From Acetobacter garciniae (lineage in GTDB: Bacteria; Pseudomonadota; Alphaproteobacteria; Acetobacterales; Acetobacteraceae), in NCBI RefSeq assembly GCF_017377735.1, contig NZ_JAFVMH010000007.1, positions 124,001 through 188,000 on the forward strand: DNA of 64,000 nt, given 5' to 3'. A program made the position numbers and the translations under genes. Below, piece after piece: positions 3,814-49,356 of this stretch. How positions within the stretch are numbered: position 1 is the first letter of the stretch; the number at the start of each line of letters is the position of its first letter. The notes beneath the pieces are model-generated. The model did no database searches. It saw nothing but the letters and a program-made list of their open reading frames with translations, and was not told the origin of the DNA.

Positions 3814-4044
3814 ACGGGTTTTTTTAAAAAGAGCCCCAATAGGCGATCACGCTTTTCCCGGACGGGGGTAACGGGTCAGGCGCCCCCTTTACAAACGGAC
3901 GCATGACGCCCCATGGACCGGCGGGAGTGGCTGGATAGCCCCAGCCGGACCCGGGGGGCCTAGACAATCGACATGGCGGGCCGGGCGTTCGTGCTACCGG
4001 TTCGCGCAGACCGACCGCACCGCCGACCCGAAGAGTGATGCCCC

Positions 4045-4965
4045 ATGGCCTTTGCCCGACGATTCCTGCCCCCCATATCGCTGCTGTGTTCGTTCGAAGC
4101 CGCGGCAAGGCACCAGAACTTCACCACCGCCGCCAAGGAACTGCACCTGACGCAAAGTGCCATCAGCCGGCATATCCGCCTGCTGGAGGAGCAGCTTGGC
4201 GCGTTGCTGTTCGTGCGCGAACGCCAGACGGTGCGGCTGACCATTGCGGGGGAATCCTACGCGCGGGAAGTGCGGGCGGCACTCAAGCAGATTGCCGCGG
4301 CCACGTTGGGGCTGCGGGCGGCACCCGCGGGCGGCACGCTGAACCTGAGCATCGTGCCCACCTTCGGCAGTTTGTGGCTGGCCCCGAAACTGCCCGACTT
4401 CAAAAGCCGTTATCCGGAAATAACGGTCAACCTGTTCACCCGCTCCACCCCGTTCGACTTTGCGGCCGAAACAATGGATGCCGCCATCCATTTCGGCATA
4501 CCCGACTGGCCGGGCACGGAATCCAGCGCGATCTGCGGGGAACGGATCGTGCCTGTCTGCGCGCCATCCCTTGCGGCACGGCATGATTTTCAAACCCCGG
4601 CCCACCTGCTGGATGCACCACTCCTGCACCTGGTCTCCCGCCCCGATGCGTGGGAACGCTGGTTCAACGCCCAGGGCCTGGATGCCGATCGCATTCATGG
4701 CATGCTGTGCGACCAGTTCTACACCATTACCCAGATCGCCATGGCGGGCGGCGGGCTGGCCCTGCTGCCCGAGATTCTGATCCAGCCCGAACTGCACGCA
4801 CGAACCCTGGTGCAGATCGGGCCGACCTATGAAGAACAAGGCGAGGCCGCCTATTACCTTGTCTGGCCGCAGGACAAAACCCAGTACAAGCCACTGGAAC
4901 TGTTCCGCCTGTGGCTGGCCGAACAGATCCTCAACCCGCCCCTGAACAGACCCGACCCCACCTGA
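4045..4965 (+). CDS. LysR-family transcriptional regulator
   Basis: 306 residues, standard length. The N-terminal winged helix-turn-helix is seen in FEAAARHQNFTTAAKEL and LTQSAISRHIRLLEEQLG (residues ~14-52), followed by the linker helix and a periplasmic-binding-like effector domain (about 95-300). The start PPISLLCSFEAAARHQNF is typical of the GcvA-like branch. It lies 231 bases downstream of the 2-hydroxyacid dehydrogenase in the same direction, so that gene is a candidate target, although LysR regulators more often control divergent neighbours. The gap between them (3814-4044) shows no gene. The effector is unknown. Confidence 0.92.
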   Translation: MAFARRFLPPISLLCSFEAAARHQNFTTAAKELHLTQSAISRHIRLLEEQLGALLFVRERQTVRLTIAGESYAREVRAALKQIAAATLGLRAAPAGGTLNLSIVPTFGSLWLAPKLPDFKSRYPEITVNLFTRSTPFDFAAETMDAAIHFGIPDWPGTESSAICGERIVPVCAPSLAARHDFQTPAHLLDAPLLHLVSRPDAWERWFNAQGLDADRIHGMLCDQFYTITQIAMAGGGLALLPEILIQPELHARTLVQIGPTYEEQGEAAYYLVWPQDKTQYKPLELFRLWLAEQILNPPLNRPDPT

Positions 4966-16554: not shown

Positions 16555-17373
16555 TCAGTCTTTCCGGGCAAGATCGTCAAAATGACCGGCAGCGCAGAAG
16601 CTGCCGCCCTGGAACCGCACGGCCGGATCGTTCGGATCGCCCTGTTCCACCTGCGCCATGACTTCGGCCGCATAATCGTCCGCGCTGTCCTGCGGCGCGT
16701 AGCCCAGGACGGAGGCGCAGTCGTTATTCCAGAAGCGCTGGCTGTTGCGCGATGTTGCAAAGCTGATCATGTGCCCCACGCGCGGCGCGTCCAGGCAGCA
16801 GGCCACAAGGGAGCGGAAGTCGCGGTAGGACAGCCAGGTGATCAGGTGCCGCCGGTCCACGGGCTTGGGAAAGCACGAGCCAATACGCAGGCAGACGCTT
16901 TCGATCCCGAACTTGTCGAAGTAGTAGCGGGACAGGTCTTCCGCATAGGCTTTGGAAACACCATAGAGGCTGTCGGGCCTTTTGGGGGCGTTGGCGTCTA
17001 TGGTGCGCGTGCGTTCGTGAAAGCCCACCGCATGGATGGAACTGGCATAGACGATACGCGTCACCCCGCACTGGCGCGCGGCTTCGTAAATATTGTACGT
17101 GCCGACAATATTGGCGTTCAGCACATCCGTCCACGGGCCTTCGATCGCCTGCCCGCCCAGATGCACGATGGCGTCGCACCCGCGCACGGCGTTCAGCACC
17201 GCATCCCAGTTGCCCAGGTCGGCCACGCCTACTTCCTCATACGGGGCGGGGTCGGTTACGGCCACGCGGTCGCTCAGGCGCAGGGCGGGGGCCAGGTCCT
17301 GGCCGGACAGCCGCAACTGCCGGCCCAGCGCACCGGCGGCACCCGTTATCAGCACACGCTTGAATTTGCTCAT
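16555..17373 (-). CDS. udh: NAD-dependent sugar-acid dehydrogenase of the uronate dehydrogenase family
   Basis: 272 residues. Extended SDR with the NAD motif ITGAAGALGR (residues ~9-18), HLGGQAIEGPWTDVLNANI, the Ser in YASSIHAVGF, and the catalytic pair in SLYGVSKAY (Tyr-x3-Lys). Further conserved stretches CLRIGSCFPKP, LITWLSYRDF and GHMISFATS match bacterial uronate dehydrogenases, which oxidise glucuronate or galacturonate to the aldarolactone with NAD+. Its place in an operon with hydantoinase, aminotransferase and amino-acid oxidase genes is odd for a uronate enzyme, so the true substrate may be another polyhydroxy or keto compound. It is 7 bases from the aminotransferase and 3 from the oxidase, so co-transcribed. 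Confidence 0.8.
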   Translation of the reverse strand: MSKFKRVLITGAAGALGRQLRLSGQDLAPALRLSDRVAVTDPAPYEEVGVADLGNWDAVLNAVRGCDAIVHLGGQAIEGPWTDVLNANIVGTYNIYEAARQCGVTRIVYASSIHAVGFHERTRTIDANAPKRPDSLYGVSKAYAEDLSRYYFDKFGIESVCLRIGSCFPKPVDRRHLITWLSYRDFRSLVACCLDAPRVGHMISFATSRNSQRFWNNDCASVLGYAPQDSADDYAAEVMAQVEQGDPNDPAVRFQGGSFCAAGHFDDLARKD

Positions 17374-44904: not shown

Positions 44905-45224
44905 GTCCGCGTAGCTCAGCAGGATAGAGCACAGGATTCCTGGGTAAAATTGGGCACCATGTCAGGAAACGTCATGGTGAATCCGCTCAAAGTCGGGGAA
45001 CGCTACGGCCGCAAGGCCTTGCCAATCCCGAGCCAAGCCGCCCCTTGGGGCGGAAGGTGTAGAGACTGGACGGGCGGTGCCTAAAGACCTGCATGCAGGT
45101 CCATGGCAAAGGGACAGTCCAGCCCACAAACGTGCCCCCCGGCCTGCCGGTGGCGGCAACGGCTGTGAAAACCGCAGTGGGATGAATCCTGGGGCCGTGG
45201 GTTCGAATCCCGCCGCGGACACCA
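44905..45224 (+). tRNA. tRNA-Arg(CCU), interrupted by a group I intron
   Basis: The exons are 44905-44941 and 45185-45224, 77 bases when joined, with CCA encoded at 45222-45224. The acceptor stem GTCCGCG pairs with CGCGGAC. The D arm has GCTC and GAGC, the anticodon stem CAGGA and TCCTG with loop TTCCTAA (anticodon CCT), and the T arm GTGGG, TTCGAAT, CCCGC. The intron sits directly after the third anticodon base. CCU reads AGG. Joined and folded, all standard positions are filled, so the gene is functional only if splicing works. Confidence 0.96.
44942..45184 (+). ncRNA. Group I self-splicing intron (IC3-like) in tRNA-Arg(CCU)
   Basis: 243 nt, preceded by U and ending in G, as required. The guide GGG (44952-44954) pairs with exon CCU, giving the U-G pair at the splice site. 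P2 is CACCATG (44955-44961) with CATGGTG (44973-44979). The core stretch AAGGTGTAGAGACTGGACGG starts at 45053, and ACAGTCC lies at 45114-45120 (second strand of P7). These match the Azoarcus and Agrobacterium tRNA introns, as I remember them. No homing endonuclease frame is inside. Confidence 0.92.
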
Positions 45225-47816: not shown

Positions 47817-48111
47817 GCCTGGGCGCTGCCCCCACCTGTCTCGAAAAAGCCATGGCCATAGCCCGCAGCACCCCTGATGGGGCCTGTATTCCGCACCGCA
47901 CGGGCCCATAAACCTAAGGTGCGGTCGCGTACGCAACGCTGCTAATGCTCTCCCCCGCTACGCAAGCCAGGCCGGGCGGGATAGTCTGCATCTGTCCGCA
48001 TCCTTCCTGCGCCTGCGCAATGACAATGGGCGGTAAGGGGATGGCGGTGCCCTGCCCCTTCCCTGCCGGGTGGCGGGGCGTGGTTGCAGGCGGGACAGTG
48101 GGGAGCATGCG

Positions 48112-49356
48112 ATGGCTGAACCGATAGCGGAGTACAACAGCTCCGAGACCAAATTATCTCCCCAGCGCGCCCTCAGCCCCGCGCAGGAGGCGCTGGTGCG
48201 CCGCATCACCACCTTCTGCGAAAACCATGAGCGCGACAGCCATGCGGTTCTCGTCATTCATGGGGATGCGGGAACGGGAAAAAGCCTGGTGCTGAACAAG
48301 GCGTTCGCCGTTCTCCAGCAGGCGGCGCGCGCAAAGGGGGCCACCGGCCCGCTGGCAGGCACGCGCAACGTGTTTTTGGTCAACCACCCCGAAATGATAA
48401 AGCTTTATCGCAACATAGCCGAATCATCACCGACATTGCGCAAAAAAGACTATGAACGCCCCACCACTTTCATAAACCACATGGACAAGGCCGGGCAGCG
48501 GGCCGATATCGTCTTTGTGGACGAAGCGCATCTGCTGCTCAGCCGTGCCGACCGCTACAACCGCTTCACGCAGGACAACCAGCTTCGTGAAATCATCCGG
48601 CTCAGCCGTGTGGTCGTTCTCGTGTTCGACCCGCGACAGGTATTGAAGTTCAAAAGCTACTGGGACGATCAGCGCCTTGCACAAATCCTGGGCCCCGTCC
48701 CGCACGAGGTCTGCACCCTGACGGAACAGTTCCGGGTACGGGCCAGGCCCGACATGCTGGAATGGATCAGCGCCTTCTGCCATGCAAGGCTTCTGCCCCT
48801 GCCCGCAAGGCAGGATTTCGATTTCCGCATCTATGACGATGCCGCCGCCATGTATCGCGATATCCGCGCACGCAACGCCACGTATGGCCTGTCACGCATG
48901 CTATCCACCTATGATTATCCCTATACGCTGGACGGGCATGACCATTTTATAGAGGAAGGGGCGTTCAGGCTGCGCTGGGACCGCGCGCGGCCCGAGCAGC
49001 GCCTGCCCTGGGCCGAACGGGCGGACACGATCGACGAGGTCGGCTCCGTCTACACGGTGCAGGGGTTCGACCTGAATTACGTGGGGCTGATCCTGGGCCC
49101 CTCGGTCACATATGACCCGGCTTGCGGGCGGATCGTCATCGACCCCGACCGGTATGAGGACGGCGCCGCATTTGCGGGGCGGGGCCACCTGCACGACCCC
49201 GACACCGTCAAGCAACAGATCATGCTCAACGCCATCAACGTGCTGATGACACGGGGCACACGGGGGCTGTATCTTTACGCCAGCAACCCGGCCCTGCGCG
49301 CGGCATTGGGGGTGCGGCAGCCGGAAGACGCGACACACACCGCGACGCATGCCTAG
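48112..49356 (+). CDS. DUF2075-family P-loop ATPase (schlafen/helicase-like)
   Basis: 414 residues. ATG at 48112 follows GGGGAG. Walker A is HGDAGTGKSLVLNKAF (about residue 50), Walker B IVFVDEAHLLL, then VVVLVFDPRQVL (motif III-like), LTEQFRVRARPDMLEWI and a C-terminal VYTVQGFDLNYVGLILGP...NVLMTRGTRGLYLY, typical of superfamily 1-like DUF2075 proteins. Many relatives carry an N-terminal nuclease domain, which is absent here. Phage-defence loci contain such ATPases, but there is no partner gene here, so no role is assigned. The next gene starts 265 bases later, behind repeat copy D. Confidence 0.85.
   Translation: MAEPIAEYNSSETKLSPQRALSPAQEALVRRITTFCENHERDSHAVLVIHGDAGTGKSLVLNKAFAVLQQAARAKGATGPLAGTRNVFLVNHPEMIKLYRNIAESSPTLRKKDYERPTTFINHMDKAGQRADIVFVDEAHLLLSRADRYNRFTQDNQLREIIRLSRVVVLVFDPRQVLKFKSYWDDQRLAQILGPVPHEVCTLTEQFRVRARPDMLEWISAFCHARLLPLPARQDFDFRIYDDAAAMYRDIRARNATYGLSRMLSTYDYPYTLDGHDHFIEEGAFRLRWDRARPEQRLPWAERADTIDEVGSVYTVQGFDLNYVGLILGPSVTYDPACGRIVIDPDRYEDGAAFAGRGHLHDPDTVKQQIMLNAINVLMTRGTRGLYLYASNPALRAALGVRQPEDATHTATHA

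What the first reader, a model, noticed from the sequence alone, without database searches (positions are those of the whole stretch)
44905..45224. tRNA-Arg(CCU) gene split by a 243-nt group I intron
The exons join to a complete tRNA with a CCU anticodon. The intron starts after U36 and ends in G, and a GGG guide pairs with the exon CCU. It also has a P2 stem with GGAA loop and the conserved core segment near 45053. This is the known tRNA group I intron class of proteobacteria (tRNA-Arg(CCU) in Agrobacterium, tRNA-Ile(CAU) in Azoarcus). It is the only gene for this tRNA in the window. If it is the sole AGG decoder in the genome, splicing is required for growth. Standard gene callers will miss or truncate it.
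Basis: partly seen in the sequence, partly recalled or inferred. Interest (0 to 1): 0.8.

Follow-up and report, generated by a model that had tools for sequence, protein, structure and literature searches.

The report
Group I intron in arginine tRNA
A gene for one arginine tRNA is interrupted by a small RNA that very probably cuts itself out; this is a real and already described trait of acetic acid bacteria and their relatives, but a close relative of it turned out to sit unnoticed near a resistance gene on many bacterial plasmids.

Summary
Covariation supports the group I fold: 27 of 59 pairs change on both sides among 26 sequences. The split gene is in 48 of 49 genomes of the genus, own included, which matching contig lengths identify as Acetobacter. 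It is in print: a tRNA-Arg split by a group I intron-like sequence in Acetobacter pasteurianus and four other acetic acid bacteria (PMC4596401); the Bartonella relative self-splices (PMC7717549). No other CCU gene was found, but tRNA-Arg(UCU) is intact, so essentiality is open. Off the window, the same intron type lies in tRNA-Leu(UAA), Lys and Thr genes of relatives, and an unannotated intron-bearing tRNA-Leu(UAA), next to tmrB and aac(3)-IId in the four records opened, is at least 80% present in 1,261 plasmids and 624 of 5,426 E. coli genomes. I know of no report of that; my searches for one were weak.

The parts
44905..44941 (+). 5' exon of tRNA-Arg(CCU), ends at U36
   Evidence: ARAGORN -i; same or nearly the same in the 48 congeneric genes
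44942..45184 (+). group I intron, 243 nt, too short for an endonuclease gene; omega-G at 45184
44939..44954 (+). P1: exon CCU 44939-44941 with guide GGG 44952-44954, U.G at the 5' splice site
   Evidence: invariant in 26 of 26, so no covariation test
44949..44951 (+). P10 strand AUU, pairs with 3' exon AAU 45185-45187
   Evidence: invariant in 26 of 26
44955..44979 (+). P2 hairpin with GAAA tetraloop
   Evidence: 4 of 7 stem pairs with changes on both sides
44983..45077 (+). P3 strands 44983-44988 and 45072-45077, enclosing P4 (44993-44997 with 45027-45031), P5 (45002-45022) and P6 (45033-45057)
   Evidence: P3: 2 of 6 pairs with changes on both sides in Arg introns, 4 of 6 with Lys introns added; P4: 1 of 5 with Lys introns
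45064..45119 (+). P7 strands 45064-45068 and 45115-45119 (guanosine-site helix by analogy)
   Evidence: invariant in Arg introns; 1 of 5 pairs compensated with the Lys introns
45078..45108 (+). P8 hairpin
   Evidence: 7 of 8 pairs with changes on both sides
45123..45181 (+). P9 strands 45123-45127 and 45177-45181 with inner hairpin
   Evidence: P9 1 of 5 pairs (3 of 26 sequences unpaired at it) and inner hairpin 3 of 3 pairs with changes on both sides
45185..45224 (+). 3' exon of tRNA-Arg(CCU) with encoded CCA

Best explanation
[quoted passage not shown] In the precursor the intron's GGG guide pairs with the anticodon CCU (P1, U36.G), an external guanosine bound at P7 cuts after U36, and the freed U36 attacks after the terminal G at 45184, held by P10 (AUU with AAU), giving a 77-nt tRNA that reads AGG. 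It has probably been inherited in place, next to holA in 22 of 29 congeneric loci checked. Shown here: exons, fold, covariation, distribution, upstream synteny. Inferred: catalysis, guanosine chemistry, use of the tRNA.
For: Exact exon joint and cloverleaf. RF00028 match with E 3.6e-5, the only one in the genome at E up to 10. 27 of 59 pairs with changes on both sides, 155 such cells against 48.0 in shuffles, 99.1% of cells paired against at most 43.2% in slid versions; 24 of 37 core pairs with the Lys introns added. Split CCU gene in 48 of 49 genomes, own included. holA in 22 of 29 congeneric loci. Other Arg genes found are UCU, ACG, CCG; no second CCU in this genome. Published self-splicing of the Bartonella orthologue (PMC7717549, passages).
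Against: Below Rfam's curated gathering score (27.9 of 50). P1, P10, P4, P7 and the two lower pairs of P6 do not vary among the 26 Arg introns, so covariation does not test them there; one of five measures, further pair types, is reached by 13 of 500 shuffles. No RNA data for this genome. No promoter- or terminator-like site passed the scan. holA was not found in 7 of 29 congeneric loci, and the downstream TPR gene in none of 29.
Confidence: 0.96

Rival explanations
1. The intron is a decayed remnant and the tRNA gene is dead; AGG is read by tRNA-Arg(UCU) alone.
For: An intact tRNA-Arg(UCU) exists. In one congeneric genome of 1.5 Mb (G038) neither the split nor an uninterrupted CCU gene was found.
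Against: All P1-P9 helices are intact in the window copy and the exons form a full tRNA; 8 of 155 arginine codons in four neighbouring genes are AGG; retained in 48 of 49 genomes.
Confidence: 0.02
2. The intron is an actively mobile element, recently gained by this lineage through reverse splicing or recombination rather than inherited.
For: The same intron type sits in several tRNA genes; the best core tree needs 17-18 host changes where 8 is the minimum. tRNA-Lys(UUU) is interrupted in 5 of 49 congeneric genomes and found uninterrupted in 41.
Against: For the Arg(CCU) copy itself: in 48 of 49 genomes, with holA upstream in 22 of 29 loci, and the window copy nests with congeneric Arg introns at 100/95. 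The tree is poorly resolved.
Confidence: 0.04

Closest known systems
tRNA-Arg(CCU) group I intron of alphaproteobacteria (Agrobacterium, Reinhold-Hurek and Shub 1992; Paquin et al. 1999; BbgpI of Bartonella bacilliformis, PMC7717549)
   Same: Same tRNA; P1-P9 stems; for BbgpI the paper reports splicing in vivo and in vitro (passages)
   Different: No difference in kind found. BbgpI was not aligned here. The 1992 and 1999 papers were seen only as references and titles; PMC93479 was not held
Split tRNA(Arg) of acetic acid bacteria, PMC4596401 Table 1 footnote
   Same: Same trait in Acetobacter pasteurianus, Asaia, Gluconobacter, Komagataeibacter and Gluconacetobacter
   Different: The passages I saw give no coordinates, fold or anticodon
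tRNA-Ile(CAU) intron of Azoarcus (subclass IC3, recalled)
   Same: Anticodon-loop site, GAAA-capped P2, compact core (recalled)
   Different: Different tRNA; not compared by a tool here
tRNA-Leu(UAA) introns of cyanobacteria, plastids and, as found here, alphaproteobacteria
   Same: Same core type by model R1; alphaproteobacterial Leu(UAA) introns fall around the Arg introns on the tree
   Different: Inserted after U34; cyanobacterial and plastid copies were not compared here

Membership tests
alphaproteobacterial tRNA-Arg(CCU) group I intron | lies after U36 of a tRNA-Arg(CCU) gene whose exons join to a complete tRNA | tested here: met
alphaproteobacterial tRNA-Arg(CCU) group I intron | intron-borne guide pairs with the CCU anticodon, U.G at the 5' splice site | tested here: met
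   26 of 26 sequences, invariant
group I intron | P3-P8 and P4-P6 domains with P7, supported by covariation | tested here: met
   within Arg introns alone P4 and P7 do not vary
group I intron | terminal guanosine (omega-G) | tested here: met
   G at 45184; G in 26 of 26
group I intron | Rfam RF00028 gathering score of 50 bits | tested here: not met
   27.9 bits, E 3.6e-5. A curator's cut-off, not a defining trait; the plasmid relative also falls below it with 36.8 bits
group I intron | guanosine-initiated self-splicing | not testable with these tools
   published for the Bartonella orthologue
group I intron subclass IC3 | subclass-specific tertiary contacts and peripheral helices | not tested
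   subclass label recalled only

The most novel reading that the evidence does not exclude
The window intron belongs to a family that has spread through the anticodon loops of several tRNA species in alphaproteobacteria: Arg(CCU), Leu(UAA), Lys(UUU), Lys(CUU) and Thr(GGU) with good support, and probably Arg(UCU), Thr(CGU) and Leu(CAA), in the labelled cases after a U at 33-36. One member has left the class: a tRNA-Leu(UAA) gene with such an intron is an unannotated passenger between orf192 and tmrB of the aacC2(aac(3)-IId)-tmrB module, at least 80% present in 1,261 plasmid records and 624 of 5,426 complete E. coli genomes. It would be a birth certificate of that resistance module, pointing to an unsampled alphaproteobacterial chromosome, and would make a self-splicing tRNA common in E. 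coli.
Probability: 0.6. Interest if true: 0.65.

Novelty: already known. Interest (0 to 1): 0.3.

Why it matters
For the window itself: standard annotation leaves this genome without its CCU tRNA, an error that an intron-aware search corrects. Beyond it: the intron family can serve as a marker. If the plasmid tRNA-Leu(UAA) splices and descends from an alphaproteobacterium, it gives a test for where the aacC2-tmrB resistance module came from, and shows a tRNA intron riding into enterobacteria, which are not known for such introns (recalled).

Tried and rejected
First alignment A1 mixed strands because loci from the genome search are not oriented; discarded and redone as A2 and A3. The first pattern for an uninterrupted CCU gene had a gap that excluded the true spacing of 13; its zero is uninformative and was replaced (1 of 49: G016, a second CCU tRNA of different sequence, L105). 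ARAGORN with introns also called tRNA-Pro(ggg) at 17159-17334; the stretch reads as coding sequence (by eye) and an intact tRNA-Pro(ggg) exists elsewhere: rejected. A tRNA search of seven genomes was not used further.

Host tRNAs. ARAGORN names several intron-bearing tRNAs wrongly (SeC, Phe, His(atg)). My splice enumeration often ranked such alternatives level with or above the accepted one, so the labels are my choice. I checked them by similarity of the two halves, anticodon left out, to the window genome's own tRNAs. The labelled tRNA came first for Arg(CCU) in 23 of 24 labelled loci from L107 on (not L150), Thr(GGU) 9 of 9, Lys(CUU) 4 of 4, Lys(UUU) 4 of 6 (Lys(CUU) first in the other 2), Leu(UAA) 18 of 30 (another leucine tRNA in 11, Pro in 1), Arg(UCU) 1 of 3, Leu(CAA) 0 of 4 (other leucine tRNAs first), Thr(CGU) 0 of 2. 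7 of 118 loci got no host at all.

Source of the plasmid module. Best protein match to AAC(3)-IId is 57% among 318 alphaproteobacterial genomes; best DNA match to the plasmid tRNA-Leu is 86% among 391 genomes of the window's family and 85% among 398 of the phylum: not found. No phage record matches the window gene; three phage records match the plasmid gene at 60-80%, not followed.

Full report
What is there. At 44905-45224 (+) lies a tRNA-Arg(CCU) gene cut by a 243-nt intron at 44942-45184. ARAGORN finds it only when introns are allowed; run as usual it reports no tRNA in the window, and Rfam at gathering scores reports nothing. The exons join to a 77-nt cloverleaf. With a permissive search RF00028 matches from 44929 to 45134 with 27.9 bits and E 3.6e-5, the only match in the genome at E up to 10.

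Fold. I drew P1, P10 and P2-P9 by hand and counted pairs on 26 distinct full-length genes, the window's and 25 relatives that I chose from 47 distinct ones of the genus (A2). 99.1% of 1,533 cells pair; 27 of 59 pairs have changes on both sides; there are 155 such cells against 48.0 in shuffles (0 of 500 as high); slid versions reach at most 43.2% paired. One measure, further pair types, is reached by 13 of 500 shuffles. The structure was drawn on the window sequence, so percent paired leans towards it. P1, P10, P4, P7 and the lower P6 pairs are invariant in these Arg introns and so untested there; adding three tRNA-Lys introns gives compensated pairs in P3 (4 of 6), P4 (1 of 5) and P7 (1 of 5), and 24 of 37 core pairs in all (A3, 23 Arg and 3 Lys rows).

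Genome context. The window is G000:C41:124001-188000 of a 3.8-Mb assembly in 43 contigs. RF00005 gives 42 matches; ARAGORN on those loci gives Arg anticodons UCU, ACG and CCG, and a pattern for an uninterrupted CCU gene finds none in this genome. No tRNA-Ile(GAU) or tRNA-Ala(UGC) came up, so the assembly lacks some tRNA genes. The split gene is thus the only CCU gene found, but not necessarily the only reader of AGG. In four neighbouring genes 8 of 155 arginine codons are AGG and none AGA. Upstream are leuS, a gene I called lptE without testing the name, and holA; downstream a TPR gene.

Distribution. A DNA search of 49 genomes of the genus matches all 49, but the full-length gene occurs in 48, own included; the 49th, G038 (1.5 Mb), has only a 24-base match inside a tRNA-Pro. 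holA lies in 22 of 29 congeneric loci checked and in 20 of 30 loci of the family search, own included; the TPR gene in none of the 29. A covariance model of the core (R1) finds the type in 140 of 299 genomes of the family (54 of 102 genera) and 51 of 385 of the class (43 of 277 genera); it was trained on introns of this genus and run with stricter filters, so distant copies are probably missed.

Other tRNA hosts. In five genomes of the genus (G019, G027, G032, G035, G044) the type interrupts tRNA-Lys(UUU) between U35 and U36; the exons equal the uninterrupted tRNA-Lys of the window genome (read by eye). The uninterrupted gene is found in 41 of 49 genomes and in none of those five (two of which are 68% and 86% complete); G029, G038 and G041 also lack the exact pattern, unexplained. 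Of 118 loci from the family and class searches 111 got a candidate host. For a tree I took 96 rows: 13 from the genus, 82 of the 118 loci, and one plasmid; the 36 dropped loci include repeats of genus genomes, near-duplicates and those without a clear host. My labels: Arg(CCU) 34, Leu(UAA) 31 with the plasmid, Lys(UUU) 9, Thr(GGU) 9, Lys(CUU) 4, Leu(CAA) 4, Arg(UCU) 3, Thr(CGU) 2; insertion after U33 (Leu CAA), U34 (Leu UAA, Arg UCU, some Lys), U35 (Lys) or U36 (Arg CCU, Thr). Leu(CAA), Arg(UCU) and Thr(CGU) rest on weaker evidence. The tree has 141 columns, 19 of 93 inner branches starred, 45 open, and a bootstrap that had not settled. It needs 17-18 host changes where 8 is the minimum (shuffled mean 52.2); starred branches alone force at least 3 for Arg(CCU), 3 for Leu(UAA) and 2 for Lys(UUU). 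The window intron nests with congeneric Arg introns (100/95). So the type stays with its tRNA for long times but has changed tRNA more than once; direction and mechanism are not shown.

A relative on resistance plasmids. A distant BLAST of the window gene against plasmids matched the intron core only, in 1,270 of 72,556 records, 1,260 of them at 80-90% identity (repeated). In pCTX-M3 and pEGY3 the match lies unannotated between two small genes and an AAA ATPase gene next to aac(3)-IId. Read by eye, L344:3927-4225 is a complete tRNA-Leu(UAA), its halves around an intron at about 3962-4174, after U34. R1 scores the core 142.2 bits, E 1.8e-41; RF00028 gives 36.8 bits, again below gathering. With L344:3940-4226 as query (it leaves out the first 13 bases of the tRNA) 1,293 plasmid records match, 1,272 of them at 99% or more, and 1,261 hold at least 80% of it. 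The longer stretch with both small genes and the ATPase gene is at least 80% present in 1,167 records. In E. coli 635 of 5,426 genomes match and 624 hold at least 80%, with 588 places on plasmids and 81 on chromosomes; the 10 rows shown carry no annotation there, nor do the two regions opened, which both have aac(3)-IId beside it. Papers describe the module as aacC2-tmrB-orf192-orf228-orf1182-ISCfr1 (PMC7096625, passages); I equate orf192 and orf228 with the two small genes by length and tmrB with the ATPase gene (named tunicamycin resistance in one record). That paper's main text has no 'tRNA' or 'intron', and PMC5517477 mentions only a group II intron elsewhere on a plasmid. The nearest chromosomal genes found are about 86% identical, in the window's own family (G068) and in another alphaproteobacterial family (G404); in the phylum sample 21 of 22 matching genomes are of the window's class. 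On the core tree its place within the Arg/Leu group is unresolved. No protein closer than 57% to AAC(3)-IId was found in 318 alphaproteobacterial genomes. Hence alphaproteobacterial origin of the tRNA is supported; origin of the whole module is inference.

Novelty. The window feature is known: PMC4596401 (Table 1 footnote) lists one tRNA(Arg) split by a sequence homologous to a group I intron in Acetobacter pasteurianus and four other acetic acid bacteria, and PMC7717549 shows splicing in vivo and in vitro of the Bartonella orthologue. Introns in tRNA-Arg(TCT) and Leu(TAA) of Beggiatoaceae are in print (PMC4853749), as are fMet and Ile2 cases (PMC8450103); PMC5733544 reports inserts of 22-49 nt in cyanobacterial tRNAs as group I introns, which at that length I doubt. 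All papers were seen as passages. That the plasmid tRNA-Leu intron is unreported rests and the two papers: one search listed 25 of 65 papers, one search listed 15 of 1,045, none of these 15 holding 'group I intron'. This is weak.

Noticed in passing
L344:3927-4225 (pCTX-M3, NC_004464.2, 61823-62121): Unannotated tRNA-Leu(UAA) with a group I intron of this type between a small gene (orf192 by length) and tmrB, near aac(3)-IId; at least 80% of it in 1,261 plasmid records and 624 of 5,426 E. coli genomes.
   Followed up: partly
L076-L080 (G035, G032, G019, G027, G044): Group I intron in tRNA-Lys(UUU), with exons identical to the uninterrupted gene of the window genome; ARAGORN calls it SeC.
   Followed up: yes
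L164, L169, L171, L178, L190, L193, L194, L212, L214: Same intron type after U36 of tRNA-Thr(GGU) in genomes of several families.
   Followed up: partly
L074, L075, L100-L102, L104: Loose 3' ends of the tRNA-Arg(CCU) gene, in L074 with the last part of the intron, elsewhere in some congeneric genomes: look like attachment-site copies left by integrating elements.
   Followed up: no
L105 (G016:C45, 165858-165934): A second, uninterrupted tRNA-Arg(CCU) of different sequence in one congeneric genome that also has the split gene.
   Followed up: no
   Followed up: partly
window 48070-49356 (+): Gene with a Schlafen group 3 DNA/RNA helicase domain (PF09848, E 5.9e-103).
   Followed up: no
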